Part shown: one piece after another, positions 33,473 through 48,496 of the stretch | How positions within the stretch are numbered: position 1 is the first letter of the stretch | How the letters are laid out: the number at the start of each line of letters is the position of its first letter | From: Janthinobacterium silvisoli | GTDB lineage: Bacteria; Pseudomonadota; Gammaproteobacteria; Burkholderiales; Burkholderiaceae_D | NCBI RefSeq assembly: GCF_014200725.1 | Contig: NZ_JACHCL010000003.1 | Location: 310,001 to 374,000, forward strand | Direction: 5' to 3' | DNA: 64,000 nt | Made by a program: the position numbers and the translations under genes | The notes under the pieces: model-generated | Database searches by the model: none | The model's input: only the letters and a program-made list of their open reading frames with translations | Told to the model about the DNA's origin: nothing

Positions 33473-33490
33473 TGTTGTTGTCTTGATCAG

Positions 33491-33520
33491 AATAAGCTCG
33501 CTGCGGCGAGCTTATTTTTT
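33491..33520 (+). terminator. Terminator of aceA
   Basis: An 11-bp stem AATAAGCTCGC/GCGAGCTTATT with a TGCG tetraloop is followed by T, and can also work on the opposite strand. Confidence 0.9.
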
Positions 33521-33532
33521 GGGAGTGAAGAC

Positions 33533-33943: not shown

Positions 33944-34055
33944 GCTGATTCCATTTATGTAGTCAATATTAAACAATTATCCAAGCCCGCCACCACGTAT
34001 GTCAATGATTTCTGTATGATGCGTTACAAAAATAAAACGATAGAGGAAAAACACG

Positions 34056-34676
34056 ATGACCATCCGAGGCCGCCCGCGCGCGTTTGACCGTGAGCAAGCG
34101 TTGCAAACCGCATTGATCACATTCTGGGAAAAAGGCTACGACCTGACCCAGGTTGCCGACCTGACGGCCGCCATGGGCATCAAACCGCCCAGCTTCTACG
34201 CCGCCTTTGGCTCCAAGCAAGCCGCATTCAACGAAGCCATCGACCTGTACCTGCGCACAGTCGGCAGCAAGACCATCCACGTACTCGAACAGACGCCGGC
34301 AGTCAACGACGCCATCCGCGCCATGCTGGCTGAAAGCATCAACGCCGCCTTGAGCGCGCCCGCTGGCGGCTGCCTGCTGATCCTGGGCGTAATCCACCGC
34401 ACGCCAGACAACGCCCAGCTGTGCCAGCGCCTGGAAGACATACGCATAAGCAACGTCGATAGCATCCGCAACCGTCTGCAGCGTGCTGCTGAAGAAGGAG
34501 AGCTAGCCGCCACAGCTGTGGAGGGATTGACGCAGTTGATTGCGACGGTGCTGCAAGGCTTGTCTTTAAGGGCGCGCGATGGGGCAACGCGGGAGGAGCT
34601 GGAGCTGGCTGTGGAGGGGGCGATGGCAGTGTTTGAGCAATTAGCTGGCGGCAAGAGGCAGGCATCTGCACAGTAA
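34056..34676 (+). CDS. TetR/AcrR family regulator
   Basis: The 206-residue regulator opens with TIRGRPRAFDREQALQTAL and the HTH DLTQVADLTAAMGIKPPSFYAAFGSK. The C-terminal domain has GGCLLILGVIH, typical of the branch controlling oxidoreductase or NTF2-like genes. GAGGAAAAAC is the ribosome site. It is divergent from the NTF2-like gene and probably represses it. No clear palindrome was found in the 112 bp between them. Confidence 0.9.
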   Translation: MTIRGRPRAFDREQALQTALITFWEKGYDLTQVADLTAAMGIKPPSFYAAFGSKQAAFNEAIDLYLRTVGSKTIHVLEQTPAVNDAIRAMLAESINAALSAPAGGCLLILGVIHRTPDNAQLCQRLEDIRISNVDSIRNRLQRAAEEGELAATAVEGLTQLIATVLQGLSLRARDGATREELELAVEGAMAVFEQLAGGKRQASAQ

Positions 34677-34843
34677 GCGTGCGCTGGTCTGAGCATGACT
34701 AAGCCGGTGCAAGCCCCCTGATACTTCCTTCACCAACAGGCAACTTTGAGCTGTGCTAATCTTTGCCTCCCCTACTCGGCCCACACAAAGACAGCGTGCT
34801 GGCATGTTGCCGGGCTTAACATTATTTCTTCTGGAGTTATAAC

Positions 34844-35476
34844 GTGCCTGATGCAAGCGCCTTACTGATGTTTGGACTCGTCGCGCTGGGCATGGCCTTG
34901 ACGCCCGGCCCCAATATGATTTATCTGATTTCCCGTTCCATCAGCCAGGGCCGGCGCGCAGGTTTTATTTCACTTGGCGGCGTGGCGCTGGGCTTCCTGT
35001 TCTACATGCTGTGCGCGGCATTCGGCATCACCGCTTTTGTATTTGCCGTGCCCTATGCTTATGATCTGTTACGCTTCGGCGGCGCGGCCTATTTGCTGTA
35101 TCTTGCCTGGCAAGCCCTCAAGCCAGGTGGGCGCTCCGCGTTTGCCGTGCGCGATTTGCCGGTTGACGGCCCACGCAAGCTCTTTCTCATGGGCTTTATC
35201 ACCAACCTGGCCAATCCCAAGATTGCAGTCATGTATTTGTCGCTGCTGCCGCAGTTTATTAGCCCTGGACATGGCAGCGTGCTAACGCAATCAATAGCGC
35301 TGGGCTGCGTTCAAATCATCGTCAGCGTGACAGTCAATGGCGTGATTGCCGTGATGGCGGGATCGATTGCAGGATTTTTGGCGCGGCGGCCAGGGTGGGT
35401 GTTGCTGCAGCGCTGGATGATGGGTGGCGTGCTGACGGGCCTGGCAGTGAGGATGGCCTGGGAAGGCAAAAAATAA
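34844..35476 (+). CDS. LysE family amino-acid exporter
   Basis: The 210-residue membrane protein starts at a GTG (34844), supported by GGAG 8 bp upstream. Six hydrophobic segments are visible. The family signature is complete: MALTPGPNMIYLISRSISQGRRAG (two blocks), then GGAAYLLYLAWQAL and FLMGFITNLANPKIAVMYLSLLPQF. RhtB/LysE proteins export amino acids or homoserine lactone-like compounds by proton exchange across the inner membrane; the substrate is not readable. Confidence 0.92.
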   Translation: MPDASALLMFGLVALGMALTPGPNMIYLISRSISQGRRAGFISLGGVALGFLFYMLCAAFGITAFVFAVPYAYDLLRFGGAAYLLYLAWQALKPGGRSAFAVRDLPVDGPRKLFLMGFITNLANPKIAVMYLSLLPQFISPGHGSVLTQSIALGCVQIIVSVTVNGVIAVMAGSIAGFLARRPGWVLLQRWMMGGVLTGLAVRMAWEGKK

Positions 35477-35568
35477 ATCCAGGGATTTTGGCTTTCTCCC
35501 TTGATTGCAAAGAACTGTATCACTGCCTGTCTTGCTACTCCTTGCGGCACCATCCATCACGCTCATTC

Positions 35569-35593
35569 TGTATCCACCGTAAAGGTGGATACA
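35569..35593. terminator. Perfect hairpin between convergent genes
   Basis: TGTATCCACC-GTAAA-GGTGGATACA is a perfect 10-bp stem with a 5-nt loop between the ends of the LysE and beta-propeller genes. No T run follows on either strand, so it may be a weak terminator or a 3'-end stabiliser. Confidence 0.5.
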
Positions 35594-35614
35594 ATTCAAT
35601 ATCAAGCCAGCTAG

Positions 35615-36787
35615 TTAAACCCCAGCCAGACCCTGCAAACTGATACCAGACTTGCTGTGCACAATCTGTTCACCGCTGCGCTTGAGCGAGCCATCGCTGC
35701 CGATGGCGTACACGACGATCTTGTCGTTGCCGGCAAAGTCCTGGTACAGGAACTTGCCATCCGGGCTGACCCAGGCATCGGCTGCGAAGCTCGATGTACC
35801 AGCGGTAATTGCCGGTTCGACAGCGGCGGCGGCATTGACCAGTGTCAAATGGCCCGCCGCATCAAGCGAGAACTGGGAAATGGCGCCGCTGCCGTTGCTC
35901 ACATACACAAAACGATTGTCTGGCGTGATGGCGATCCAGCACGGCGCCATCTGGCCCGTCACGGTAATCGGAGCGCCCAGGGAACTGAAGCTGCCGCCAG
36001 CCGTAAAATTGTAGGAGCTGGCGGTGGTACCGGCGGCGTCCGCCGTCAGGTACACATTCGATTGCGCGCCATGGCCGAAGACGCCGCCAAACGGGCCCAC
36101 GCCTACCGTGGCCGAGTTGACTGGATTGGCCAAGGTGCCATCGCTATTGATAGCGAAAACGAGCAGCGTATTGCCCGGCGTGACCGGCGACAATGACTTC
36201 AGGAAACCGTTGACGACCACGAATTTATGGTCCGGGCTGATCGACACCTCGGTCGGCAGCGCATCTTGCTGCAGCACGGCATAGGAGCCCAGCTGCGTCA
36301 GCTTGCCATCGGCGCCGACACGGTAAGCACCCAGCTCATTGACACCTTGCTGATGCGTCACGTACAAAACACCGTTATTGAAAGCCAGCGAAGTAGGCCG
36401 GATACCGCCAGTGGACGACACGCCCAGCAAGGTCAAACCGCCAGTCGGCGCAATCGTGAAGACGCTGACGGTATTGTCGCCTGCATTGGCCACGAACAGC
36501 TGCTTGCCATCGTCGGACACCACCACGCTGTGGTTACTGGTCAGCGCATCAGGCGCGACCGTATTGCCCATGAAATAGTTCACGCCATTGGTGCCCTTGC
36601 CACCCGTCGCGACTGGCGCCATTGCGGTCAGCGTGCCATCCGTGTTGCGCAGATATTGCACCACCATATTGGTGTTGTCATTGGTCTGGGCAAACAATTG
36701 CGAGGCCGCTGGCGCCTGGCTGCTGCTGCCGCCGCACGCTGCCAACAGGGTCGCTACCGCACTGGCGATTAAAAAATTCTTGATCAT
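35615..36787 (-). CDS. Seven-bladed beta-propeller lipoprotein (lactonase-like)
   Basis: The 390-residue protein has a lipoprotein signal (VATLLAACGG). The rest is a beta-propeller with repeated blades of about 50 residues (SDDGKQLFVANAGDNTVSVF, SPDHKFVVVNG, TPDNRFVYVSNGSGAISQF, SPDGKFLYQDFAGNDKIVVY), matching the lactonase/6-phosphogluconolactonase-like family. It is probably attached to a membrane in the periplasm. GGAGA lies before the ATG. Catalytic activity in such secreted relatives is mostly unproven. Confidence 0.85.
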   Translation of the reverse strand: MIKNFLIASAVATLLAACGGSSSQAPAASQLFAQTNDNTNMVVQYLRNTDGTLTAMAPVATGGKGTNGVNYFMGNTVAPDALTSNHSVVVSDDGKQLFVANAGDNTVSVFTIAPTGGLTLLGVSSTGGIRPTSLAFNNGVLYVTHQQGVNELGAYRVGADGKLTQLGSYAVLQQDALPTEVSISPDHKFVVVNGFLKSLSPVTPGNTLLVFAINSDGTLANPVNSATVGVGPFGGVFGHGAQSNVYLTADAAGTTASSYNFTAGGSFSSLGAPITVTGQMAPCWIAITPDNRFVYVSNGSGAISQFSLDAAGHLTLVNAAAAVEPAITAGTSSFAADAWVSPDGKFLYQDFAGNDKIVVYAIGSDGSLKRSGEQIVHSKSGISLQGLAGV

Positions 36788-37004
36788 TTGTTTCTCCGCT
36801 AAGTTTTATCTGGCGCAGCCGGAATGGACGACGCCGTTGTGATTCCATGGGCCAAGAGGGGATGGCTTGGGGTTGCGGAGGGTACTTCGGTGGGGATAAG
36901 GAATTAGTTACAGGGCGGGAGGAATTTCTTGGAATAATCTACGAACAGCCCACAATTCTTCAATGCCAGCGATACAGCACTGGCATTCAAAAACGCCAAC
37001 AATA
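36788..37004. other. Intergenic region with one hairpin
   Basis: AATGCCAG and CTGGCATT pair across a 10-nt loop at about 36962-36988, just downstream of the OmpA-family gene on the minus strand. There is no T run. No gene is seen. Confidence 0.4.
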
Positions 37005-38042
37005 TCAGCGTTTTACCAATTCGACACGGCGGTTCTTGGCCCTGCCTGCCTCATTAGCATTGTCTTGCAATGGCCGCTCGGCGCCCAAACCAAGGGCATT
37101 GAGGCGCGTGGCATCGATGCCTTGCGCAGTGATGGCTTTCACAACAGCTTGCGCACGCGCAAGTGACAAGGTTTTATTATGCGCGGCGGCGCCAACATTG
37201 TCGGTATGGCCTTCGATATTCAATTGCAACTTGCTGTCCGCGCGTAGCAGCTTGACGATCTCATCGACTGCTGTTTTACCTTCTGCCTTGATCACGTCGC
37301 TGTCGGTGTCAAAAGGCAGATACAGCGCGACGTGGCCTTGCGTTTGCAAGCTCGCCGCCATGGCATCGGCCTTGATGAAGCCAACGCTTTGCTGCAGCGG
37401 TTTTTCTTCTACAGTCAGCAGCCAGGTTAAATTATCGTCATCGAAGATCGACACGACAAACCAGATATTGGTCTTGTCCGTGCGCAGCAGATAGACATGG
37501 TAATTCTTGCCACCATTACTAATGCCGGGCAAGTGCATTTTTTGCGCCAGCACACTATCTTGTTCAGGATGTAATTTTCTAAATTCCGGGTCCGCTGGCA
37601 CGATGTCATTGACCAGCACACCACCCAGCAATTTGATCGCATTTTCGTGATTTTTTACGGAACCGATGGCTGACATTCCTATCGTGTTATGCGGAAAGAA
37701 GCGACGGGAAACCTTGCCTTCTACCGTACGCAAATCATGGCCGGCGATCAGCTGGACTTCGTCAAAATCGGAGTCTTGCGTATTGTGCTTATAGCCGTCA
37801 TCCAGCTTGTCTGGGTAGGCCAGATAAGGAAACGGCGGCAATGCCACGCTCGATACCGGCACACTATTGATATCGAATCCCGGCTTGGCAGCCATGGACG
37901 ACGCGACCTGGACAGTATCCGCACTACTGACACTGGCAGCGCTGGCGTTACTGGCAGGTGCTTCTGCCGGTTTTTTCTTGCAAGCGGCCAAGCTTAACGC
38001 TGCAAGCAGACAGACGGTAAATGACAAAGTATAAAGGCGCAT
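37005..38042 (-). CDS. OmpA family lipoprotein
   Basis: The 345-residue protein has a lipoprotein signal (LAALSLAACKKK). A unique N-terminal region (40-225) is followed by an OmpA/MotB peptidoglycan-binding domain (about 235-345) with ALYLPFDTDSDVIK, LNIEGHTDNVGAAAHNKTLSLARA and the AGRAKNRRVEL end. The NIEGHTDNVG Asp and the RRVE Arg that bind diaminopimelate are present. It would tether an outer-membrane lipid to the cell wall from the periplasm. The middle region carries no recognised domain. Confidence 0.9.
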   Translation of the reverse strand: MRLYTLSFTVCLLAALSLAACKKKPAEAPASNASAASVSSADTVQVASSMAAKPGFDINSVPVSSVALPPFPYLAYPDKLDDGYKHNTQDSDFDEVQLIAGHDLRTVEGKVSRRFFPHNTIGMSAIGSVKNHENAIKLLGGVLVNDIVPADPEFRKLHPEQDSVLAQKMHLPGISNGGKNYHVYLLRTDKTNIWFVVSIFDDDNLTWLLTVEEKPLQQSVGFIKADAMAASLQTQGHVALYLPFDTDSDVIKAEGKTAVDEIVKLLRADSKLQLNIEGHTDNVGAAAHNKTLSLARAQAVVKAITAQGIDATRLNALGLGAERPLQDNANEAGRAKNRRVELVKR

Positions 38043-38378
38043 AGTGGATGGGAAGAATAAGTGAGAAAGTCAACGCGAGGGAGTCAGCCAAATACTGAGT
38101 AAAGCCTTGCGTGATGTATGAGTGAGAAATTGAATCTCTACATTGAGATACAGTAGAAAATAACGCAATACTTATCGAAACGCCAGTGATAAATGTGTAA
38201 TGCGGATAGCTGTCTCGGGGGGAGTGGCTGGTATGCCGGGAAGCTGCTTCAATCGCCAGCTGATTTGACAAGAAGATACCTGGTGCAGACGTCAGCCTTC
38301 ACCAGGTATTAGACGCTGCCCCCCCCCTGCCACACGTGCCAGTGACCGGGGTTTGTAATGGATGGCTTGATGGCGAAC
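38043..38378. other. Intergenic region, no gene seen
   Basis: AT-rich sequence holding the promoter of the OmpA-family gene, followed by a run of C at about 38320-38330. No ORF, RNA or convincing repeat was recognised. Confidence 0.4.
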
Positions 38379-39122
38379 TTATTTTGCCTTACCGCGAAAA
38401 GTGACGCTTTGACGAGCAATGGTCTGGGTCACAAAATCAGCGTCGTTCGGAATCGGTTCCCAGAAATAAGGATGTTTAAAAAAGGGAATCCACTCAAATT
38501 TGCGCGAACGGAAAATCCAGCGGTTTTTCTTGAATTCACTGTAGCGGTCGCCCTTGTAGCGCGGGTCTACCGAAGTAAACGGCAGCAAGCGTTCGGCAAT
38601 ATCGGTAAATTCCAGGGTTGGATGCGCATCTTTGAATTGTTCAAAAACGTCAAATTGATCGCGGCAAATCACTTGTATCGCTGTTTCCGGAAACCGATAG
38701 CGCTGCGCCCACAGCACATGCCAGCCTGACTCTGTTTTGTTAATGAAGTCGGCCAGTTTCTGGCTCAAAACAAAAGCATCCGATTCGATATGAATAATCT
38801 TGTCGGCGCCGAGGGCCTTGGCCACCTCGATCGAATGCAGAAAACTGCGCCACCAGCCAGGATAAGCCTCGATGCTTTGCCGTCCCAGATTATCCTCGAA
38901 ACGTATCAGGATATTTTTATCATCCACTCCGGCCAAAGGTGCATCGTGCGCAACGCTCTTGATGACCTCCTGCGGCGGGATGTACGGAGAACCGTCATCG
39001 ATCAGGATACGTTTGACGACATCGATGGGAACGTCCTGGTAATAATCGAGCCACCGCTGATAACGACTTTCCCAGGAGTGGACATCTCTGGAAAAACTGG
39101 TACAAAACATAATGCTTTTCAT
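38379..39122 (-). CDS. Glycosyltransferase-like hypothetical protein
   Basis: The 247-residue cytoplasmic protein starts MKSIMFCTSFSRD. The order of segments suggests a GT-A-type nucleotide-sugar fold: an N-terminal strand, IDDGSPY, then GADKIIHIESDAFVLSQ in the position of a DxD metal motif, and GWHVLWAQRYRFPETAIQV. It is not an exact family match. The C-terminal part is rich in aromatic and basic residues. It stands alone, with no sugar-synthesis genes around it. Assignment is tentative. Confidence 0.55.
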   Translation of the reverse strand: MKSIMFCTSFSRDVHSWESRYQRWLDYYQDVPIDVVKRILIDDGSPYIPPQEVIKSVAHDAPLAGVDDKNILIRFEDNLGRQSIEAYPGWWRSFLHSIEVAKALGADKIIHIESDAFVLSQKLADFINKTESGWHVLWAQRYRFPETAIQVICRDQFDVFEQFKDAHPTLEFTDIAERLLPFTSVDPRYKGDRYSEFKKNRWIFRSRKFEWIPFFKHPYFWEPIPNDADFVTQTIARQSVTFRGKAK

Positions 39123-39478
39123 GGTGGCGATGGGTGATTTTCTTCGGACGTTGCCAGGACTGGGGACTATTTTACGGCCGAGATGAGGGGATTAAAAGGA
39201 TAGTGATGGGGGCAATCTGGATAGCAACTGGCGTGTTCTTACACCGCTGTTTGTTCGTCTGCTGGCTTGGGCTGGATTGACTGATGTTTGCAGTATAGGC
39301 CAGGCGCCGGTCAGTTTCCGGGATGTTATCACAGATGCACTAGGCAACTTTGGGAAAAGTTGTTGGGGGAGTGGGTAACTGGCTGGCTTGTGGGCTGATG
39401 AAAACTACGAGCAGGCGCCTGGAGGGTGTGGAGGCTAAGGTACTGAGCAGGCTGTGCATGCATGGCGGAACTGGCCTT
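39123..39478. other. Intergenic region, no gene seen
   Basis: No convincing coding or RNA feature. A longer plus-strand frame beginning at 39350 runs into the higB remnant, but its first 55 codons do not resemble a toxin. Confidence 0.35.
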
Positions 39479-39518
39479 GGCTCCTGTTGGCTCCTGTTGG
39501 TTTCTGTTGGTTGCTGTG
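39479..39518. repeat. Four 10-bp tandem repeats before the higB remnant
   Basis: GGCTCCTGTT occurs twice exactly (39479-39498), followed by GGTTTCTGTT and GGTTGCTGTG. The array ends exactly where recognisable HigB coding sequence begins. Confidence 0.7.
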
Positions 39519-39628
39519 AAATAGGCGGAAACAAGTATCGCATCATCGCTGCGATACACTGCAATCGGCAGCTCCTCTACGTTCGAAACGTGTACACCCA
39601 TAAGGAATATGACGCATGGCAGCCCTGA
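39518..39628 (+). pseudogene. 5'-deleted HigB-type toxin gene
   Basis: The 36 codons read EIGGNKYRIIAAIHCNRQ then LLYVRNVYTHKEYDAWQP. This is the C-terminal third of HigB-family mRNA interferases, including the conserved GNKYR and THKEYD. The N-terminal two thirds are missing, and the upstream sequence is a short tandem repeat. The stop overlaps the start of higA by 13 bp, the normal toxin-first arrangement. The toxin should be inactive. Confidence 0.75.
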
Positions 39629-40041
39629 TGGATCACAAAGTGGTCGAACAAATCACTACGCATTACCAAGCATTATCGACGCTGGTGCCCCTTCACCCAC
39701 TAAACGATGAGGCAGATTATGAGCGCGCAGTCGGTATCTTGAACGGCCTGCTCGATGCCGGCGCCGCCGATGAAAATCATCCCTTGGCCATGCTCGTTGA
39801 CACGCTCGGCATGTTGATCAGTAAATATGACGATCAGCACTATCCCGCTCCGCCAGTCTCGCCTGCGGCAGTGATACGCTCGCTGATGGAACAGCATCAA
39901 TTGACTCAAAGGGACTTGGCTGAGATCGGCAGCCAAGGCGTCGTATCCGAAGTCTTGAGTGGGAAGCGGAAACTCAATATTCGTCAGGTGAAGGCATTGG
40001 CTAGGCGGTTTGATTTGCCTGTGGGGGTGTTTGTTGGTTGA
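39616..40041 (+). CDS. higA: HigA-type antitoxin
   Basis: The 141-residue antitoxin has a toxin-binding N-terminal half (residues 1-75) and a C-terminal Xre-type HTH (SLMEQHQLTQRDLAEIGSQG, VVSEVLSGKRKLNIRQVKAL), the layout of the larger HigA proteins that repress their own promoter. It appears intact while its toxin partner is truncated, so it is an orphan antitoxin. It may still bind DNA or neutralise related toxins. Confidence 0.88.
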   Translation: MAALMDHKVVEQITTHYQALSTLVPLHPLNDEADYERAVGILNGLLDAGAADENHPLAMLVDTLGMLISKYDDQHYPAPPVSPAAVIRSLMEQHQLTQRDLAEIGSQGVVSEVLSGKRKLNIRQVKALARRFDLPVGVFVG

Positions 40042-40186
40042 TGGGGGGGGTGTTGGTGCAACTCGTTATACACAAGTCTGCCAGTCGCGCCGTGGTACTG
40101 AAAATCAATTTACTTTCAATGACTTGCCAGCCCCCCTTGTAAAGGCTTGCGAAATCGCGTTTACTTTCGTCCTTTGCGTGGCGTAA

Positions 40187-40477
40187 ATGGCAGGCAAGTC
40201 GAGAGCATGGACGGACTCGGAGTTTGAGCAACTCGACTTGGGCGATGCGCGCCTGAACCGGCAAGCGAGGACACTGACGGAAAGTATGGCGGCGACACCG
40301 ACGGCGAGCGTGCCAAAGGCGTGTAACGGCTGGGGCGAAACGATGGCGGCATATCGTTTCTTCGACAATGAAAGCGTTGAGTGGCGTGCAATCCTGGAGC
40401 CGCACTGGCAGCAAACGGAACAGTGGATGGCCGCGCAGACGGCCAGCGAGGCTGGTCCGAAGGAAAGCCTGCGCTGA
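40187..40477 (+). pseudogene. IS4-family (Tn5-like) transposase N-terminal fragment
   Basis: The 96-residue frame starts MAGKSRAWTDSEFEQLDLGDARLNRQ and matches the DNA-binding N-terminal domain of Tn5/IS50-like transposases, with ACNGWGETMAAYRFFDNESVEW the hallmark. The normal protein is about 450 residues and the DDE domain is missing; the frame ends at a stop right before a terminator. It marks the left flank of the AT-rich island. Confidence 0.78.
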
Positions 40478-40487
40478 ATCCGTTATG

Positions 40488-40524
40488 AAAGCCCCGAAAG
40501 TTGGCATCCGGCTTTCGGGGCTTT
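40488..40524. terminator. Strong hairpin after the IS4 fragment
   Basis: A 13-bp stem AAAGCCCCGAAAG/CTTTCGGGGCTTT with an 11-nt loop. The short T and A tracts on the flanks allow use in both directions. Confidence 0.75.
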
Positions 40525-40688
40525 ATTCCAAAAAAAGATAGGTTAAGAGACAGCGTTGCCAGCTAGATTGCGCCACAATGAAAAAGCTCGTAGTTATGCG
40601 GGCTTGGCGGTGTTTTGCTGCTTGGAATTGCCATTGTTTACGCAACGAAGAGGATAGCCAAGTTTTCAGTGCAACTTAATATCAACGA

Positions 40689-41138
40689 TTAATTGATCTT
40701 ATTGGCGATCACTGCATCCTGACTGGTCGGCTGAATTTCACCACCTTCAACTTTACCCCCTGCCCCAATTACGGCTCGAAACATTACAGGTGCGATTGTC
40801 CCTTTTGACGTATCAAAGCCGAAAAATTGGACATTAAGTGCGTTAGGCAGGCAAGCCACTCCCAATCTACCGTAGAGCGAACGATTATTGATACTATGTC
40901 CAAGCGCAGTATCGCTAACATCAACCTGCTGCTGATCTGCCTTAAACCACAGCCTCTTGCTAACTCTCTGAAAACGAATTTCATACTTACGATTGTCGCA
41001 TTCAGCACTGTAGGCGATTTCATCCGCGTTTGACAGCTTAGGACCAGGTCCACTAGTCACTGATACAGACTCTGCACTGGCGAAATTCGCGCCACCGAAC
41101 AAGATGGCGACGAGGGTGGCAGCTTTAAAAATTTTCAT
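40689..41138 (-). CDS. Small exported protein, candidate immunity or accessory factor
   Basis: The 149-residue product starts at 41138 (MKIFKAATLVAILFGG), with a Sec signal peptide ending FASAES; the ATG 13 codons above lacks a signal-like N-terminus. The mature part (about 125 residues) has two Cys (SAECDNRKYEIRF and GVACLPNALN) and a beta-rich look. No family was recognised. It is the last gene of the HlyD/Fic/effector/ABC group, 92 bp after the ABC gene on the same strand, and shares the AT-rich composition. A periplasmic immunity or helper role is a guess from position. Confidence 0.6.
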   Translation of the reverse strand: MKIFKAATLVAILFGGANFASAESVSVTSGPGPKLSNADEIAYSAECDNRKYEIRFQRVSKRLWFKADQQQVDVSDTALGHSINNRSLYGRLGVACLPNALNVQFFGFDTSKGTIAPVMFRAVIGAGGKVEGGEIQPTSQDAVIANKIN

Positions 41139-41230
41139 ACAATTCCTGTAAGGTTGATTTACTGGGGGGGATTGCAAGACTTCGTCTCTACAATGCTGAT
41201 TACTATGCGTTTATGACTGCCAGAGCGGTC

Positions 41231-43312
41231 TTAACTTGTCTGCTTCAGACGATCAAAGATAACAACACCTTGATCTATACCAATAATTCGATCAGCCGCG
41301 TCAATAGTTTCCTTACGATGAGCAACGATAATACGAGTGATAGCTAGCTGTTTTAGTGCGATATTAATGCTGCTTTCGCGCTCGGCATCCAATGATGACG
41401 TCGCTTCATCAAGAATCAGGATTTGTGGCTCACGATAAAGTGCGCGCGCAAGCAGCATTCGCTGTTTTTGTCCTCCTGAGAGCGTTGAACCTAAGTCACC
41501 AACTAATGTTTCAGCTCGCATTGGCATCGTATTCACTTCGTCGTACAGGGCAGCAGCGCGCAAGCAACGCCATACTTTGTCAATATCGATGCAATCGTCA
41601 AAAAATGCGACATTTTCCGCAATAGAACCAGAAAGCAATTCATCATCTTGCATAACTACCCCAAGAGAGCGACGTACAGCACGCGTGCCCCAAGAGCGCA
41701 AACTCTGGCCATCTATCAGTATTTCGCCAGCTGCTACCGGATACAATCCACAAATTATTTTAAGCAGTGTCGACTTGCCAGTTCCGGAAGGACCGACAAT
41801 TGCGACAAACTCTCCCTTTTTAATGCTGAACGAAATATTCGAAAGTATGTACTTTTCTTGGACAGCGTATGTGAAGTACAAACCACGCACATCAACGTTT
41901 CCTTCAATGACACGGTCGATCATGCCCCCCCCGGTCAAGCCATCTTCCTGTTTCGTCAGTACGATATCTGCCAGGCGGTAACTATAGATTCCGGTATTAC
42001 GCCATTTGACGTATTGATCAAATAAAGCATTAGCTTTTGACGAAAATTGCGTCTGGTAGCTTAAGAATGCATATAGCACTCCTATACTCATCTGGTGCTG
42101 CATGACCGATTTGACGCCAAGGTAGATAAGAAAAATTTTTACTAGGCCATCAACGAGTGACTGTAATGTTCCGAACCCCAAATTTACTATAGAGAGTGCT
42201 TGGTCACGCTTGATTGTTTCTGCAAATTTGTTAGCCCATTCGCTCTCCCGCTCGTTTTCTGCTCCCATTATCTTAATGGTCTGGATCGCACGAATAGACT
42301 CAATACGTTTTCCACTCTCCGCTATCTTCGCCATCATTGCCGCCGCACCCAGTTTTATCGTGACTGGTATGGAAATTAATCTCAGGAATATATAACACAT
42401 GAAACCTGCGATCACGATTAAACCCAAGCGCAAGTCATACAGCAGCATCATTGCCAAAGTTACCAAAGCCAAAGTTCCATCAACGATAGCAGATACCAGA
42501 CTTCCAGATAGTATATCCCTAACTGGCGAAATGGCATCAAAACGCGACAAGACATCGGCTAACCGCCGTTTTTGAAACCAGGGTAGCGGGAGGCGAATGA
42601 GATGCCTGAACAAGCGTAGACTCATGTCCCAATTCAGCAGTGACGTTAAATTAGTTGTTACTACGCCGCGCAAAAATGTAGCTCCGGCATTGAACACGCA
42701 GAACATGGCGAATCCAACTGCAAGTGCTCCCAAAATTTTGTCGTCACCTTTCAATGCGGCTTGGTCTATCGCTGTCTGCAAGTAGAATGGCGTGGCTATG
42801 ACGTATGCCTGCAAGACAAAAGAAAGAAAGATGATTTGTCCAAGGGGGGTCCACATTTCGCGAGAAAATTTGAACCAAGATGAAAGCGACAGTTCGCTTG
42901 GCCGACGTCGCCTGACAAAACTTGCGGCAGGTGTTAGTTCAAGTGCTACACCAGTAAATTTGCTAGATATATCTTTGATCGATGGATAATATGTTCCAAA
43001 GGCAGGATCAAACACCAGGTATTTGTTGCGTTTAACTTTTTCAAGCACGACGAAATGTTGAAAGTTCCAGTGCAAAATGGCGGGAGTTTTCAAATCAGCA
43101 AGTTCATCCACCTCACAACTTACAGCCCTACCTACCAATCCAATATCAGCAGCGATATCCTTCATCTCACGCAGATTTAGGCCTCTATTTGAAACGGGGT
43201 ACTTCCTCCTTAGCTCATTTAGCGCTTCGTTGCCGCCTAGCTTGCTCGAAACGTGAGCCAGGCAGACTAATCCACACTCAGACAGCTCATCTTGCAGTAG
43301 AAGTTTTTTCAT
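41231..43312 (-). CDS. C39 peptidase-containing ABC exporter (PCAT)
   Basis: About 693 residues from the ATG at 43312 (MKKLLLQDELSECGL), the usual family start; a further ATG at 43354 is in frame. Residues 1-130 are a C39 cysteine peptidase with Cys13, His86 (QHFVVL) and Asp102 (FDPAFG), so the catalytic triad is intact and it should cut double-glycine leaders. Six membrane helices (about 150-440) precede a nucleotide-binding domain with VGPSGTGKST, LSGGQKQRMLLARAL and ILILDEATSSLD. It would process and export a substrate across the inner membrane with the HlyD-type protein encoded upstream. The gene directly upstream encodes a double-glycine-leader protein. Confidence 0.93.
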   Translation of the reverse strand: MKKLLLQDELSECGLVCLAHVSSKLGGNEALNELRRKYPVSNRGLNLREMKDIAADIGLVGRAVSCEVDELADLKTPAILHWNFQHFVVLEKVKRNKYLVFDPAFGTYYPSIKDISSKFTGVALELTPAASFVRRRRPSELSLSSWFKFSREMWTPLGQIIFLSFVLQAYVIATPFYLQTAIDQAALKGDDKILGALAVGFAMFCVFNAGATFLRGVVTTNLTSLLNWDMSLRLFRHLIRLPLPWFQKRRLADVLSRFDAISPVRDILSGSLVSAIVDGTLALVTLAMMLLYDLRLGLIVIAGFMCYIFLRLISIPVTIKLGAAAMMAKIAESGKRIESIRAIQTIKIMGAENERESEWANKFAETIKRDQALSIVNLGFGTLQSLVDGLVKIFLIYLGVKSVMQHQMSIGVLYAFLSYQTQFSSKANALFDQYVKWRNTGIYSYRLADIVLTKQEDGLTGGGMIDRVIEGNVDVRGLYFTYAVQEKYILSNISFSIKKGEFVAIVGPSGTGKSTLLKIICGLYPVAAGEILIDGQSLRSWGTRAVRRSLGVVMQDDELLSGSIAENVAFFDDCIDIDKVWRCLRAAALYDEVNTMPMRAETLVGDLGSTLSGGQKQRMLLARALYREPQILILDEATSSLDAERESSINIALKQLAITRIIVAHRKETIDAADRIIGIDQGVVIFDRLKQTS

Positions 43313-43373
43313 TAGTGATCGAGATTTCGAGATGGCCGTTCTGTTAGCCGGCATAACAAAACGGCACGCTCAA

Positions 43374-44054
43374 TTAGTGGTCGGTGCTAATATTATTGCC
43401 AAGATGGTTTGTATTCGGGCTCACCGTGTGATCGTACTCATAAGTAGAGTGCGTTGCTTCGTCAACGATATACATCAGCGCATTTGGATCGACGGCAGAT
43501 GTATTAGCTGTCAAAGTGCGAATGCTCTGTACGTCTGTTTTCGAAGGGAAAGCCTCATTTACACCGGGCGTTTCCGGATGATCGTGTATCCAGGCAACCA
43601 CCTTTTCGCCCTGGCTCAAATCTGCAGTTGCAGTATTGCTATCTTCATTTCCAGTACTGATTGGTCCAGTGCGGAGAGTTCCGTCAACCGCACGAATAAT
43701 CAGTGCACCATGTTCGTTACCATCAATTTTTGTCATTGCCGCCAACTGCTTGCCGAGATCATCAGCAACATTACGCAAATGATTCAGATCCACATTCTCA
43801 GGAACATGGGCTGGAGCTGGTGATGAGTGCTGCGTGGTGCTACTGCTGCTGCCACCACTTCCATGGTCCCCGCCAGAATCGCTAGGCGAATCACTGCCCG
43901 GATCTGGATTCCAACCGCCGTCGCCACCACCGTCGTCGCCACCGTTACCGGATGCCGAGACGGTTACGCTAGGGATACCGGTAGTGTCAGTATTAGCAGC
44001 AGCCTGGCGACCGCCAGCTACAAGATCAAGAATGTCGTCAGGAATAATACGCAT
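43374..44054 (-). CDS. Double-glycine-leader protein with JAMM-like domain (putative exported effector)
   Basis: The 226-residue protein opens with MRIIPDDILDLVAGG|RQ, an N-terminal double-glycine leader of the type cut by C39 peptidases. Residues 30-80 are a Gly/Ser/Asp-rich linker. Residues 85-215 form a globular domain with a JAMM/MPN-like metal pattern: Glu114 (NEHGALI), His157 and His159 (WIHDHP), then Ser171 and Asp174 (FPSKTD). The HxH-to-S spacing is 11 instead of the usual 7, closer to DUF4329/JAB domains of polymorphic toxins. There is no Sec signal. The C39 exporter gene follows and the Fic gene precedes it by 11 bp. This is most likely the cargo of the system; proteolytic or toxin activity is inferred. 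Confidence 0.75.
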   Translation of the reverse strand: MRIIPDDILDLVAGGRQAAANTDTTGIPSVTVSASGNGGDDGGGDGGWNPDPGSDSPSDSGGDHGSGGSSSSTTQHSSPAPAHVPENVDLNHLRNVADDLGKQLAAMTKIDGNEHGALIIRAVDGTLRTGPISTGNEDSNTATADLSQGEKVVAWIHDHPETPGVNEAFPSKTDVQSIRTLTANTSAVDPNALMYIVDEATHSTYEYDHTVSPNTNHLGNNISTDH

Positions 44055-44065
44055 TGGTTCTCCAT

Positions 44066-45262
44066 CTATTTAAAATCATAAATAAGTAACAGTGCATCAT
44101 TGACATCACATATCTCCGTCAAATAAAACGTAGATATATTTATGATAATTTTCGCATCAATTACTGGATCATTGGTCCTAATTAATAATTCAAAAATATC
44201 TATCTCTGGCAAACTATATCGTATTTCACGAAATAGCGCTCTTAACTCCTCCCCTCTTTCCGAATTAACAACAAAAGTAATAGCCGTGCGGTTTGCATTT
44301 TCCTCGAAAACCGAAAGCAGGGAAAAAGCGTATTCTATTTCCCCAAACTCTAGAATCTTTCTGGCAGCCTCTTGGATCAAATCGATAGATTTTGAAGACG
44401 GAATCTGTTCGCATAGTTCGCCCCAAGAAATGGTAAATGGTGAAATGGCATTAAGATCAAATTGACGCTCTCGGAAGTTGTTAACCTTATTACTATTAAT
44501 GAAATCAATAGCAATAGGATCTTTTACACATATAATTTCTGAGGCATACTTAATATATTGCTCAAATAAATCAACAAGAAAAATTGTGAGAGGATAATAG
44601 TTACCATCGGCATGGCCACGCGCCAGCATCTCCTCAAATATCCCTTTAGAACATCTAAGAATTTCAGATAGTGGCATGATATGCGCATCGAAACCTGCGC
44701 GATCACGTAAAAATGCATTAACTAATACACGTCCTGTTCGTCCATTTCCATCGGAAAATGGATGAGAAACCAACATGATGATAAAAATATTAATTGCATC
44801 CCAAATAGGATTAGCACTGTTAAAAACTTTAAATGAATGAAAGACAGGATCGGATTTCCCCGGTGGAGGAATTCGGAGCCATGGCAAGTGCTTTATTGAG
44901 AGGTCACTGGTACGAAGGGGCTCACTGGAACCAAAAAGGTGGACCCGTATAGCACAAGCAACATCATAAATTTTCCCATCGCTGAAATTTTGAGGTTGTT
45001 TTCTTAAAAGACTGAGAACAGACTTTTCCATTCCAAGTCCGAATGCTGGCTCTTCTTTCAATTTCGCTGTGGCGACTATAGATTCACGAACATCCGGATC
45101 GGAAGACTGGATAAATATAAATCCATCAAGTTGCACATACGTCAAGGAAACAGATCGAATCGCCTTGTAATTCTGATACAACTTGTGCAGGCGAGCTTTG
45201 GTATGATTATCCAGATCTCTCCAGCGCAAGGGGAAGAATGGTGGACTAATTTTTGATTTCAT
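44066..45262 (-). CDS. Fic domain protein (putative AMP transferase)
   Basis: The 398-residue protein carries an exact Fic core HPFSDGNGRTGR (167-178) with catalytic His167, preceded by the NPIWDAINIFIIMLVS helix. Fic enzymes transfer AMP or related groups to hydroxyls of target proteins. I see no obvious [S/T]xxxE[G/N] inhibitory motif before the core, and no separate small antitoxin gene. The C-terminal 200 residues resemble no family I can name. There is no signal peptide or double-glycine leader. Its ATG begins 2 bp after the HlyD stop, so it is translated as part of the exporter operon. Its target could be the effector, the exporter, or recipient proteins. Confidence 0.85.
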   Translation of the reverse strand: MKSKISPPFFPLRWRDLDNHTKARLHKLYQNYKAIRSVSLTYVQLDGFIFIQSSDPDVRESIVATAKLKEEPAFGLGMEKSVLSLLRKQPQNFSDGKIYDVACAIRVHLFGSSEPLRTSDLSIKHLPWLRIPPPGKSDPVFHSFKVFNSANPIWDAINIFIIMLVSHPFSDGNGRTGRVLVNAFLRDRAGFDAHIMPLSEILRCSKGIFEEMLARGHADGNYYPLTIFLVDLFEQYIKYASEIICVKDPIAIDFINSNKVNNFRERQFDLNAISPFTISWGELCEQIPSSKSIDLIQEAARKILEFGEIEYAFSLLSVFEENANRTAITFVVNSERGEELRALFREIRYSLPEIDIFELLIRTNDPVIDAKIIINISTFYLTEICDVNDALLLIYDFK

Positions 45263-45264
45263 AA

Positions 45265-46569
45265 TTAATTAAAAAAACGTTTATTTGCCGCACGTAGTGG
45301 TTCAAAAAGAAGTTGAAGCAGCGATTGTTTTTCTAAAATCAAATCTGCCTTGAGTAACATACCAGGCGTCAAATTCCAATCTGAACCAAATGCAGTCAGG
45401 CTCGACTGCGCAATACGTACTCTCACGCGGAATAACTGCTCTTTCGTTTCAATCGAAGATGGAATTTCCCTGGGCTGGATAGCTGAGCCTGAAATTTCGA
45501 CTACCACTCCCTCGCCTGCGCCGAAGGTCTCATAAGGAAATGAGTCATACATCAGACGCACCTTATTCCCAGGTTTGACAAAGCCGATTGCACGTGAAGG
45601 AGCCCAGAGTTCAACCTCCAGCGGTGTGCTTAACTTGGCCGTCCCGGCAGGGACGATAATCGCAATTGTGTCCTCTGGTGATACAATTGCTCCTTCACGA
45701 ATTTTTAGTGCTGTAACAAATCCCGAAATTGGCGCGAGTAATTTTTCCGATAAATGAGAACCTGTATTTAGTTCTTTCTCTTTAAGAGACTCACGCGCGC
45801 CCAAGGCTTCAGATCGCGCCTGCTCGCCCTCTGCAACCAGACGTCCCAGTTGAGATCCAATCTGCTCTATTTGTGTCTGCTGTTGCGAGCGATCGCGCTC
45901 CGCCTGTTCCAGTTGTTGTTGAAGAGCCAGTCCTGCATCTTCCAACTGTCGAATTACGACTTCTGAAACCATGCCCTTCTCAGCAAGTTGCTGATTTGAC
46001 CGCACGGTGTCTCTTTGTAAATTTATGCGTTTCATTAGTAAAGCCTTGAGATCTTCTAGTTTTTCTATATCACGCGCTAAACCTGTACGCCGAGTATGAA
46101 GCTCTTGAATCTGTTGTTCAATTTGAGTGAAGTGAGCAGAAGCTTGTTTCTCCTGCGCAGAACGTTGTGATTCCTGAATAGACTTCAATGCTTCCTCAAG
46201 AGAAACTCCATTCCTTAAAGTTTGATTTGCTGCTATCAGAGCAATTGGCGTGCCGACAGATACAAAATCTCCTTCACGCACATAAATATTAGTTGCCGCC
46301 CCACTTAACTGAGAAGCAATACGAAAAGATCCGGCTGCTGGCGTAATTTGGCCAGCCACCGTCTCACGCCGTGAGTATTTTGATGAGGCCAAAAATACTC
46401 CGGCTCCAATTAATATAAAAACAAAAAACCCAGTTAAAATCCAACCAGATAAAATTAATTGTTTTATAGGTGCACCCTTTATAGCTCTTACCTCATCTAG
46501 TGCATTTTTACGAAAAATTGACAACAGTAAGTCTTTCTCCGAGGTTCGGAGCTTTTTCTCTTGAGTCAT
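45265..46569 (-). CDS. HlyD family periplasmic adaptor (MFP)
   Basis: The 434-residue adaptor has one N-terminal membrane helix (about 37-62, LILSGWILTGFFVFILIGAG), a lipoyl half (VAGQITPAAG), a long coiled-coil hairpin (about 125-270, rich in Gln/Glu) and the second lipoyl/beta-barrel half (LLAPISGFVTALKI, PGNKVRLMYDSFPYETFG, LTPGMLLKADLILEK). This is the form found with colicin V-type exporters (CvaA-like). It links the ABC exporter to an outer-membrane tunnel; no TolC-like gene is in the window. It is the first gene of the operon. No clear ribosome site precedes the ATG at 46569. Confidence 0.92.
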   Translation of the reverse strand: MTQEKKLRTSEKDLLLSIFRKNALDEVRAIKGAPIKQLILSGWILTGFFVFILIGAGVFLASSKYSRRETVAGQITPAAGSFRIASQLSGAATNIYVREGDFVSVGTPIALIAANQTLRNGVSLEEALKSIQESQRSAQEKQASAHFTQIEQQIQELHTRRTGLARDIEKLEDLKALLMKRINLQRDTVRSNQQLAEKGMVSEVVIRQLEDAGLALQQQLEQAERDRSQQQTQIEQIGSQLGRLVAEGEQARSEALGARESLKEKELNTGSHLSEKLLAPISGFVTALKIREGAIVSPEDTIAIIVPAGTAKLSTPLEVELWAPSRAIGFVKPGNKVRLMYDSFPYETFGAGEGVVVEISGSAIQPREIPSSIETKEQLFRVRVRIAQSSLTAFGSDWNLTPGMLLKADLILEKQSLLQLLFEPLRAANKRFFN

Positions 46570-46829
46570 CGTTAATTAACAAAGTTTTATCGGGATAAAG
46601 TCTATCAAACATCCTCTTTAACATTCTCACAAAAAGTCACACAACACAGTACGTTACAAATGAAAGATTATCGAATATTACAATTTCGTAATCTAATACT
46701 TGTATGGCTTGAATAAAATAAAATCCAACCCAAGCTACTCAATCTTTGAAAATTCTGCTTATTTATTTTTTCAAAAAAAATGGATGCACAAAGTGATCAC
46801 CAGACGCGCCCATGGGATGAGGGTCAGTT
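46570..46829 (-). promoter_or_regulatory. AT-rich upstream region of the secretion operon
   Basis: Strongly AT-rich sequence between the HlyD start and the IS3-family element. It must hold the operon promoter unless the IS separated it from one. I cannot single out convincing -35/-10 boxes or an operator. Confidence 0.35.
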
Positions 46830-46887
46830 TGAGCTAGTCCGGTTTTCATGGACATCCTCAGGGGACAATGTTCCCCGGAGGATACTC

Positions 46888-47247
46888 ATGAAGAAAAAAC
46901 AATTACCCTCGAAGCGGGAGATCATTCCCGCGTCACCGAAATTAGCACCGAAGTCGCGTGTGACATTCACCGATTCGTTCAAGCGCGATGCAGTGGCGCG
47001 GCTGCGCGCAGGCAATCAAAGTGCCACGGATCTGGCGGTAGAGCTGGGGCTGCGTCGTAATCAGCTCTATAAATGGGCCAAGAAGCTGGACGAGCAATCA
47101 TCCGAGGACTCCTTGCGCTCTCCTGGCCGCCCCCCGGCCGGTGATCTGAGCGAAGTCGAGCAATTACGACGCGACCTTGCCAGTGCCCAGGAGGAGCTGG
47201 CCATCTTAAAAAAGTTAGATGCGTACTTAACTCTCCTAAAGAAGTGA
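46888..47247 (+). CDS. IS3-family transposase OrfA
   Basis: The 119-residue OrfA starts at 46888 (MKKKQLPSKREII), with GGAGG 7 bp upstream. It has an HTH (FKRDAVARLRAGNQSATDLAVELGL, in two blocks, then RRNQLYKWAKKLDE) and a leucine-zipper-like end (EVEQLRRDLASAQEELAILKK). The run AAAAAAG at 47208-47214 is a standard -1 frameshift site. Reading on in the -1 frame gives KKVRCVLNSPKEVRYAVID and joins OrfB to make OrfAB. Confidence 0.88.
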   Translation: MKKKQLPSKREIIPASPKLAPKSRVTFTDSFKRDAVARLRAGNQSATDLAVELGLRRNQLYKWAKKLDEQSSEDSLRSPGRPPAGDLSEVEQLRRDLASAQEELAILKKLDAYLTLLKK

Positions 47248-48110
47248 GGTACGCCGTCATTGATGCGCATCGCAGCGAGTTTTCAGTCAAGTCGCTATGT
47301 CGCGTGCTCGATATCAGCCGCAGCCTGTACTACGCCTTCAAACAGGATCGGCCAAGCTTGCGCAGCCAGCAGGATTTGGCCTTGCGTGCCAGGATCGTTG
47401 CCATCAATACAGCGCATCGCTGGGCGCCTGGCGCCGTGAAGATGTGGCATTTGCTCAAGGCCGAAGGCATCCAATGTGGGAAGCACCGGGTAATTAGACT
47501 GCGCAAACTGGAAGGCATTCAGACGACCCGCATGAAACGTTTCCGTGTCATGCAAGCGAAGGAGCGTGTGCAGCCGCCAGCGCCTGATCTGGTCAAGCGT
47601 GCTTTTCAGGTCGATGCCCCAAACAAGGTTTGGGTGGGAGACATCACGTCCTTGCGCACCAGAGAAGGATGGGTTCACCTGGCAATCGTACTCGATTTAT
47701 TTGCCCGTCGCGTGGTCGGCTGGGCCATGAATAGTACCCAAGCCGCGACGCTGCCGATGGCGGCGTTGAGCATGGCATTAGCTCAGCGGCAGCCCCGTGC
47801 AGGACTCATTTTCCACAGCGATCAAGGTACGGTTTATGGGTGCAATGACTACCGTGAACTGCTGCAAAAACATGGTGTGCTGGCGAGCATGAGCCGTAAA
47901 GGCAACTGTCACGACAATGCCGTGGCCGAAAGCTTCTTTTCCAATCTGAAAAACGAAGTGATGCACGATCACCTGTTTGCATGCAGAGAGGAAGCGAGGG
48001 CGGTGGTAAATGATTACATCGAGATGTATTACAATCGAAGCAGGCTACATCAAACCCTGGGTTATCAAACGCCGGTACAAGTGGAGGCACAGTTTCGTGT
48101 GCTTAATTAA
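47244..48110 (+). CDS. IS3-family transposase OrfB (rve integrase core)
   Basis: The 288-residue frame overlaps the end of OrfA and is normally made as an OrfAB fusion by -1 slippage. It has an HTH_21 region (SVKSLCRVLDISRSLYYAFK) and a complete DDE catalytic core: Asp in VGDITSL, Asp in FHSDQGT, Glu in NAVAESFFSNLKNE. It ends with YYNRSRLHQTLGYQTP, typical of the family. Nothing suggests inactivation. Confidence 0.9.
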   Translation: MRYAVIDAHRSEFSVKSLCRVLDISRSLYYAFKQDRPSLRSQQDLALRARIVAINTAHRWAPGAVKMWHLLKAEGIQCGKHRVIRLRKLEGIQTTRMKRFRVMQAKERVQPPAPDLVKRAFQVDAPNKVWVGDITSLRTREGWVHLAIVLDLFARRVVGWAMNSTQAATLPMAALSMALAQRQPRAGLIFHSDQGTVYGCNDYRELLQKHGVLASMSRKGNCHDNAVAESFFSNLKNEVMHDHLFACREEARAVVNDYIEMYYNRSRLHQTLGYQTPVQVEAQFRVLN

Positions 48111-48136
48111 CTGTCCTGAAAATCCGAACTACCTCA

Positions 48137-48496
48137 GTTCTGCCATTCGGACACAACCTCATCCATCATAAATCAAAGCAGAACAGCAATATGCCCCGGC
48201 CCAAGTCGCAAGCAAGGGTTCTCCGGGCCCAGCGGGTCTGAAAAATGGTCAGGGCAAGGCGCGCGGGCGCAGACAGTACGCATGTACGGCAAGCCCAAGC
48301 AACGCAGCCATGGCCATTTTCTCAGGCCCGCGATTCAGGCCCGCACTTCAAGTGCAGCAGAGCCTGTTCTGCCATTCAGACACGGACTGATGCATGGGGC
48401 GCAGTAGAAGCTAACTCAGTCGAAACCTGATCAGAACCACGAACGCGCGCCGGAGGCGCGCGAAGCTGCCGCGTAGCGGCAGCAGTTGGTCGATTC
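48137..48496. other. Gene-free stretch between the IS and tRNA-Ser
   Basis: No gene is seen. It contains an imperfect direct repeat (GTTCTGCCATTC at 48137 and 48366, 17 of 18 bases over the longer copy), a 95-bp element with inverted ends (48234-48328), and two GC-rich hairpins at about 48445-48461 and 48465-48483. Confidence 0.5.
48234..48328. repeat. 95-bp element with inverted repeat ends
   Basis: GGGTCTGAAAAATGG on the left is matched by CCATTTTCTCAGGCCC on the right in inverted orientation with one gap and few mismatches. The centre contains the palindrome GTACGCATGTAC. It resembles the structured intergenic repeats common in Oxalobacteraceae; genome copy number cannot be checked here. 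Confidence 0.5.

What the first reader, a model, noticed from the sequence alone, without database searches (positions are those of the whole stretch)
40689..46569. Five-gene secretion operon with a built-in Fic enzyme and a JAMM-like double-glycine cargo
Seen: minus-strand genes in the order HlyD adaptor, Fic protein, double-glycine-leader protein, C39-peptidase ABC exporter, Sec-exported small protein, with gaps of 2, 11, 61 and 92 bp. The C39 triad (Cys13, His86, Asp102), the Fic core with its His, and the GG leader are all intact. Known: C39-ABC/HlyD pairs normally export small bacteriocins or RiPP-type peptides. Inference: here the cargo is a 226-residue enzyme-like protein, and an AMP-transferase is translated with the exporter. 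That combination is not one I know as a named system. The Fic protein could modify the cargo, keep it inactive before export, or act on the exporter.
Basis: partly seen in the sequence, partly recalled or inferred. Interest (0 to 1): 0.88.

Follow-up and report, generated by a model that had tools for sequence, protein, structure and literature searches.

The report
Exported JAB-like toxin operon with Fic enzyme
A rare, mobile set of bacterial genes appears to export a toxin-like enzyme together with its own antidote, and it carries a protein-modifying Fic enzyme that stays next to the toxin gene across genera, suggesting that the toxin is chemically modified before export.

Summary
The five genes are real, intact and in the stated order. 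The cargo has a 15-residue double-glycine leader, a Gly/Ser linker and a divergent JAB/JAMM-like domain; the nearest described family is DUF4329/Tox-JAB-2, matched below the Pfam cut-off. Cargo relatives were accepted in 5 of 294 genomes of the family, the window's own included (one hit rejected). All 5 have a Fic gene in the same gene string; only 3 have the exporter beside it. One relative keeps cargo-immunity-immunity-Fic, rearranged. Fic therefore follows the cargo, not the exporter. Best reading: a type-I-secreted antibacterial toxin/immunity operon whose Fic enzyme modifies the cargo, to mature or silence it. The Fic role, export and toxicity are inference. The operon lies in a strain-specific stretch near tRNA-Ser. 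Nine full-text searches listed no paper on this combination.

The parts
45265..46569 (-). HlyD-family periplasmic adaptor, 434 aa
   Evidence: Pfam HlyD_3 60.1 bits; 50% and 46% identical to the HlyD of the homologous operons L019 and L020
44066..45262 (-). Fic protein, 398 aa: Pfam Fic stretch 149-185 with HPFSDGNGRTGR at 167, and a C-terminal region of about 150 aa that aligns with three of the four relatives (absent from the short Fic of G171)
   Evidence: Pfam Fic 31.5 bits, cut-off 24; catalytic residues invariant in the five aligned sequences
43374..44054 (-). Cargo, 226 aa: GG leader 1-15, Gly/Ser/Pro linker about 16-75, HSSPAPAHVP motif 76-85, JAB/JAMM-like domain about 90-226 (E114, H157, H159, S171, D174)
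   Evidence: DUF4329 and Prok-JAB weak matches; conservation in five sequences and in three
44010..44054 (-). Double-glycine leader MRIIPDDILDLVAGG
   Evidence: same 15-residue type in L019 and L020
41231..43312 (-). C39-peptidase ABC exporter, 693 aa from the second ATG (707 from 43354)
   Evidence: Pfam Peptidase_C39, ABC_membrane, ABC_tran; Cys/His/Asp conserved; aligns over residues 19-699 with solved C39 exporters such as 4ry2 and 8vp3
40689..41138 (-). Small protein, 149 aa, signal-peptide-like N-terminus, two conserved cysteines (47, 96): candidate immunity protein
   Evidence: homologues beside the cargo in L019 (two copies), L020 and L022 (two copies); itself no Pfam match
46780..48110 (+). 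Transposase pair (46780-47247, 47244-48110) bordering the operon upstream; called IS3-type from reading the ORFs, not from a search
   Evidence: ORFs
40187..40474 (+). Transposase N-terminal fragment bordering the operon downstream
   Evidence: Pfam Tnp_DNA_bind 80 bits
48625..48715 (-). tRNA-Ser(GGA), candidate edge of the island
   Evidence: the flank shared with congeners begins at about 48.4-48.9 kb

Best explanation
This is a horizontally acquired type I secretion operon for one toxin-like enzyme. Step 1: the cargo (JAB/JAMM-like protein behind a Gly/Ser linker) is made with a double-glycine leader. Step 2: the Fic enzyme encoded just upstream nucleotidylates the cargo in the cytoplasm, perhaps at the linker or the conserved HSSPxPxxxP motif, keeping it inactive or maturing it. 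Step 3: the C39 domain cuts after Gly15 and the ABC/HlyD pair, with a TolC-type outer-membrane protein from elsewhere in the genome (not searched for), exports it. Step 4: the small exported two-cysteine protein protects the producer in its periplasm. Shown by sequence: gene content, intact motifs, conservation of the Fic-cargo-small protein set. Inferred: export, toxicity, immunity, and the substrate of Fic. Component probabilities: exported toxin plus immunity about 0.7; Fic acting on the cargo about 0.5.
For: HlyD-Fic-cargo-small protein(s)-C39 ABC recurs as one tight gene string in two other genera (L019, L020; gaps 7-116 bp), with cargo 42 and 35%, Fic 35 and 26%, small proteins 22-33% and exporter 61 and 59% identical. 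Five of five accepted cargo loci among 294 genomes have a Fic gene in the string; 3 of 5 have the exporter. In G171 the order is cargo-immunity-immunity-Fic with gaps of 32, 11 and 53 bp and no C39-ABC/HlyD pair recognised in the 19 kb read. E, HxH and an S..D are kept in 5 of 5 cargos, and the Fic core (HPF or HPY, then xDGNGRxxR) in 5 of 5 Fic proteins. Small proteins: hydrophobic N-termini and two cysteines 49-60 residues apart in the six scored, doubled in 2 of 5 loci, as expected of periplasmic immunity proteins. DUF4329 = Tox-JAB-2 is listed as a polymorphic-toxin domain, and the immunity protein of the other toxin-JAB clade, Tox-JAB-1 (Imm65), has a signal peptide and lipobox (PMC3482391, passages). 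The HSSPxPxxxP motif before the JAB domain is in 5 of 5 Fic-linked cargos and in 0 of 8 other DUF4329-type loci from 7 genomes.
Against: No biochemical test. The cargo is below the Pfam cut-offs and carries HDH where Tox-JAB-2 is described with H[ST]H. The immunity protein listed for Tox-JAB-2 itself is an NTF2-type protein, not noted there as exported. The MccV C39 exporter secreted 26-66-residue cargo but dropped abruptly at 116 residues (PMC10231218, section 7), so a 211-residue mature cargo is unusual. Two of five cargo loci have no adjacent exporter, the G171 cargo has no clear GG leader, and the G199 leader is less typical. The small protein of G199 does not align with the others. The short G171 Fic is only 16% identical to the window's over the whole alignment and could be a separate recruitment. 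The five loci may share one ancestral operon, so 5 of 5 is not five independent events. JAB relatives in other families of the phylum with similar small proteins show no Fic in the 19 kb read, so Fic is not needed for such proteins in general.
Confidence: 0.45

Rival explanations
1. Same exported toxin/immunity operon, but Fic modifies something other than the cargo: the exporter, the small protein before export, or a host regulator that times production.
For: Fic starts 2 bp after HlyD in the window and 10 and 7 bp after it in L019 and L020. The Fic C-terminal region of about 150 aa is conserved in the four long copies and could bind another partner.
Against: In G171 and G199 Fic stays in the same gene string as the cargo without an adjacent exporter, and the short G171 Fic lacks the C-terminal region. 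This speaks against the exporter as partner, not against the small protein or a host protein.
Confidence: 0.2
2. The exported JAB protein is not an antibacterial toxin but an extracellular enzyme (for instance processing a surface protein or acting on a eukaryote), and the small exported protein is a periplasmic chaperone or a second secreted component.
For: JAB domains were first shown to be peptidases of ubiquitin-like tails (stated in PMC3482391); no toxicity data.
Against: Nearest described domain is a polymorphic-toxin domain; the small protein evolves fast and is doubled in 2 of 5 loci, as immunity genes often are; two relatives in other families keep a JAB protein plus small exported protein(s) with no C39 exporter beside them.
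Confidence: 0.2
3. Fic is a hitch-hiker: a toxin-antitoxin remnant or second toxin that happened to land in an export operon.
For: Fic genes are common on mobile DNA (general knowledge); its G+C (38%) is the lowest of the five genes.
Against: Retention in 5 of 5 cargo loci, at 26-36% identity among the four long copies, with intact catalytic core and tight spacing; no GG leader seen on Fic; no conserved [ST]xxxE[GN] inhibitory motif and no antitoxin-like gene among the operon genes.
Confidence: 0.1

Closest known systems
C39-peptidase ABC / HlyD type I export of double-glycine microcins (MccV CvaAB)
   Same: C39-ABC with intact triad, HlyD adaptor, GG-leader cargo, small candidate immunity protein encoded beside it
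   Different: Cargo is a 211-residue (mature) JAB-like protein instead of a short peptide; a Fic gene is in the operon; no TolC gene in the operon
Polymorphic toxins with Tox-JAB-2 (DUF4329) and Tox-JAB-1/Imm65
   Same: JAB-type domain at the C-terminus; adjacent small protein with a signal-peptide-like start, comparable in that to Imm65
   Different: Trafficking listed there is T2SS, T6SS, T7SS or TcdB/TcaC, not C39 type I; the immunity listed for Tox-JAB-2 is NTF2-type (passages); cargo below the DUF4329 cut-off; the window's small protein matches no Pfam family
Fic AMP-transferases (SoFic, FICD, NmFic)
   Same: HPFxDGNGRxxR core; profile of the operon Fics matches their solved chains
   Different: Own C-terminal region; no conserved inhibitory motif found; located in an export operon
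RTX toxin operons with an activating acyltransferase (HlyC/HlyA), recalled from general knowledge, no call
   Same: Type I exporter, toxin and a dedicated cytoplasmic modifying enzyme in one operon
   Different: Different enzyme chemistry (Fic instead of acyltransferase), GG leader instead of C-terminal signal, C39 peptidase intact, immunity-type gene present

Membership tests
C39-peptidase type I exporter | N-terminal C39 domain with Cys, His, Asp | tested here: met
   Pfam 101.5 bits; residues conserved in the alignment with L019 and L020
C39-peptidase type I exporter | ABC membrane and ATPase domains plus adjacent HlyD adaptor | tested here: met
   ORF order
C39-peptidase type I exporter | Adjacent substrate with double-glycine leader | tested here: met
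   MRIIPDDILDLVAGG; V, L, I at -4, -7, -12
C39-peptidase type I exporter | Cleavage and export of the cargo | not testable with these tools
   needs experiment
C39-peptidase type I exporter | TolC-type outer-membrane channel | not tested
   none among the five genes; the rest of the genome was not searched for it
DUF4329 / Tox-JAB-2 | Score over the Pfam gathering cut-off | tested here: not met
   22.5 bits against 28.6; the four relatives 15.4, 16.8, no match and 21.1 bits
DUF4329 / Tox-JAB-2 | Residues E, H[ST]H, S, D | tested here: inconclusive
   E, HxH and S..D kept in 5 of 5, but x is D in the window and L019, S or T in the other three
Fic (PF02661) | Curated score and HxFx[DE]GNGRxxR core | tested here: met
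   31.5 bits against 24; HPFSDGNGRTGR
Fic classes with built-in inhibitory helix | [ST]xxxE[GN] motif, conserved | tested here: not met
   pattern in 2 of 5, far C-terminal to the core, not conserved; the motif itself is recalled
Toxin/immunity operon | Specific small protein encoded beside the toxin | tested here: met
   small exported-looking protein in 5 of 5 cargo loci (one gene away in the window); homologous in 4, not alignable in G199
Toxin/immunity operon | Toxicity and neutralisation | not testable with these tools
   needs experiment

The most novel reading that the evidence does not exclude
A Fic enzyme that nucleotidylates a type-I-secreted toxin in the producer cytoplasm, as cytosolic self-protection or as an activation step, while a second, exported immunity protein guards the periplasm: a two-compartment immunity scheme and an AMPylation counterpart of the HlyC/HlyA acylation system.
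Probability: 0.35. Interest if true: 0.82.

Novelty: new variant of a known kind. Interest (0 to 1): 0.62.

Why it matters
Known Fic enzymes act on host proteins, chaperones or topoisomerases (general knowledge). A Fic enzyme dedicated to an exported toxin would give AMPylation a new role in maturation or self-protection, testable by co-expression and mass spectrometry. It would also extend the cargo of C39 exporters from peptides to toxin-size enzymes, and give the poorly understood JAB toxin clade a compact experimental system.

Tried and rejected
Collection scans with cargo and Fic C-terminal alignments over genome contigs gave 17 and 99 pattern matches, none confirmed; viral contigs with the cargo, 41 matches, none confirmed. 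Those scans use narrow peptide patterns and may leave out the window's own genome, so they do not show absence. tblastn of cargo in plasmids and phages, and of Fic in plasmids, found nothing. The sixth cargo hit (G098) was rejected: it covers residues 32-130, mainly the Gly-rich linker, has stop codons, and G098 has no match in the domain-only searches. Single-sequence models: cargo mean pLDDT 37, useless; mature small protein pLDDT 60, mostly strands, 0 Foldseek matches with E up to 0.001. PDB profile search of the cargo domain gave only MtrB chains, best E=0.0026, judged chance because neither aligned stretch is significant alone; the small-protein profile gave only an antibody chain at E=0.41. 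In Pfam up to E=10, one of five small proteins matched NOMO_5th at 0.0046 and one MPI_cupin_dom at 0.14; not followed. The comparison of the small-protein family with those of the other families was suggestive only: hhalign E=0.0023, probability 13%. Promoter and terminator scans were at shuffle level, so co-transcription rests on spacing. PADLOC hits to Fic, JAB and ABC models are judged generic. I considered and dropped the idea that the small proteins are lipoproteins: LLAC and ALGC in relatives did not fit the lipobox pattern used.
Full report
Observation. The five minus-strand genes exist as described. HlyD and Fic are 2 bp apart, Fic and cargo 11 bp, cargo and ABC gene 61 or 19 bp depending on the start, ABC and small gene 92 bp. 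Pfam gives HlyD, Fic, C39, ABC-membrane and ABC-ATPase domains over their cut-offs, and weak, sub-cut-off DUF4329 (1.1e-4) and Prok-JAB (9.3e-4) matches for the cargo; the small protein matches nothing.

Anatomy of the cargo. Residues 1-15 are a double-glycine leader with hydrophobic -4, -7 and -12. A Gly/Ser/Pro linker follows to about residue 75, then an HSSPxPxxxP-type motif and a JAB/JAMM-like domain. Glu114 and both His of HDH (157, 159) are invariant in the five aligned sequences; Ser171 and Asp174 are invariant in the three closest, and the other two have an S..D after the HxH at another spacing.

Distribution. Names are not given for these genomes; 'family' and 'genus' are the tool's groupings. 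In 294 genomes of the same family, the window's own included, the long Fic is found in 4 and the cargo in 6, of which G098 is rejected as a linker artefact, leaving 5. The domain-only profile finds 5 of 398 genomes across the phylum (two of this family, three others), 2 of 399 in the order (both of this family) and 2 of 62 in the genus of G018. The Fic profile finds 2 of 398 in the phylum, 1 of 17 in the genus of G148 and 1 of 40 in the window's own genus. These sets overlap, and the first-look step scores only some candidates. The system is rare and patchy.

Neighbourhoods. G018 (L019): HlyD, Fic, cargo, two small proteins, C39 ABC. G148 (L020): HlyD, Fic, cargo, small protein, C39 ABC. Compared with the window the ABC is 61% and 59% identical, HlyD 50% and 46%, cargo 42% and 35%, Fic 35% and 26%, small proteins 28 and 22%, and 33%. 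In these two the small genes lie between cargo and ABC; in the window the small gene follows the ABC. G199 (L021, a 3.2-kb contig): Fic, cargo and a small exported-looking protein that does not align with the others; read by eye, the contig ends look like transposase pieces and no HlyD precedes Fic. The best C39-ABC of that genome is only 37% identical. G171 (L022): cargo, two small proteins, then a short Fic of 216 aa, gaps 32, 11 and 53 bp. In the 19 kb read there is no C39-ABC/HlyD pair, only another type of ABC ATPase and a 57-residue HlyD match judged chance; the best C39-ABC elsewhere is 28% identical. So a Fic gene is present in 5 of 5 cargo loci, a small exported-looking protein in 5 of 5, and the exporter in 3 of 5. 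The loci may be related by descent, so these counts are not independent; the retention at low identity (cargo 29-44%, long Fics 26-36%) is what carries weight. The short G171 Fic is 16% identical overall, with local matches of 33-46% around the Fic core, and may be a separate recruitment.

Outside the family. Two of the three other phylum hits are JAB-type proteins next to small exported-looking proteins with paired cysteines, without Fic or C39 exporter recognised in the 19 kb read: G686 (L050; GG leader MRELTSAEIAMVSGG, the gene has an in-frame stop, two small genes) and G596 (L051; no clear GG leader; other ABC ATPases are present). The third, G380 (L052), is a DUF4329 protein with a hydrophobic start in another setting. 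A Pfam DUF4329 search of 84 genomes in the family of G686 found 6 genomes with matches, 4 over the cut-off, and 0 of 14 control genomes. No Fic motif was seen in the ORFs listed for six 3.3-kb loci of five of those genomes. The HSSPxPxxxP motif is in 5 of 5 Fic-linked cargos and in 0 of 8 other loci from 7 genomes.

Mobility. The five genes have 38-51% G+C against 56.7% for the window. They are bordered by a transposase pair (46780-48110) and a transposase fragment (40187-40474), near tRNA-Ser(GGA). In eight congeners the acs gene next to that tRNA is present at 85-91% identity, but nothing of the operon was found in the 16 kb read; a wider look in the genus found the Fic in the window's own genome only, 1 of 40.

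Interpretation. A C39/HlyD exporter with an adjacent GG-leader protein is a type I export unit (established for microcins). The cargo's nearest described domain is Tox-JAB-2, a polymorphic-toxin domain partly overlapping DUF4329; that paper suggests that toxin JABs are nucleases rather than peptidases, lists an NTF2-type immunity protein for Tox-JAB-2, and gives Tox-JAB-1 an immunity protein with signal peptide and lipobox (PMC3482391, passages). A Salmonella survey lists Rhs-DUF4329 proteins as predicted RNase effectors (PMC10469887, passages). A small, fast-evolving, duplicated protein with an export-type start and a possible disulphide fits a periplasmic immunity protein. Because Fic stays with cargo and small genes when the exporter is missing and the gene order changes, its partner is more likely the cargo (or the small protein) than the exporter. 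Whether it matures or silences the cargo cannot be decided; silencing would solve the problem that a periplasmic immunity protein leaves the cytoplasm unguarded.

Limits. The MccV exporter secreted 26-66-residue cargo but much less at 116 residues (PMC10231218, abstract and section 7), so the long cargo here is a real question. Structures could not be modelled well. Not in print as far as looked: the searches listed no paper on a Fic gene in a C39/HlyD toxin operon; lists were capped at 20 where more papers matched (92, 145), only listings and the passages and sections named were read, and the library lacks most subscription papers.

Noticed in passing
window 40187-40474 and 46780-48110: Transposase fragment (Tnp_DNA_bind) and a transposase pair (IS3-type by reading) on the two sides of the operon.
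   Followed up: partly
window 33473-48370: Stretch next to tRNA-Ser(GGA) that was not found in the 16 kb read in eight congeners, apart from one 70-bp match.
   Followed up: partly
L023:8819-12301: A second C39-ABC/HlyD pair in the same genome, 38% and 26% identical to the operon's; no Fic or cargo match among the ORFs listed around it.
   Followed up: no
L050:8846-10456: GG-leader JAB gene with an in-frame stop in a genome of another family, followed by two open small-protein genes of the immunity type.
   Followed up: partly
L021:2399-2911: In G199 the place of the immunity gene is taken by a small exported-looking protein that does not align with the others.
   Followed up: partly
window 39616-40041: HTH_3 regulator gene downstream of the operon, matching a HipB-type antitoxin model weakly, far below its cut-off.
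   Followed up: no
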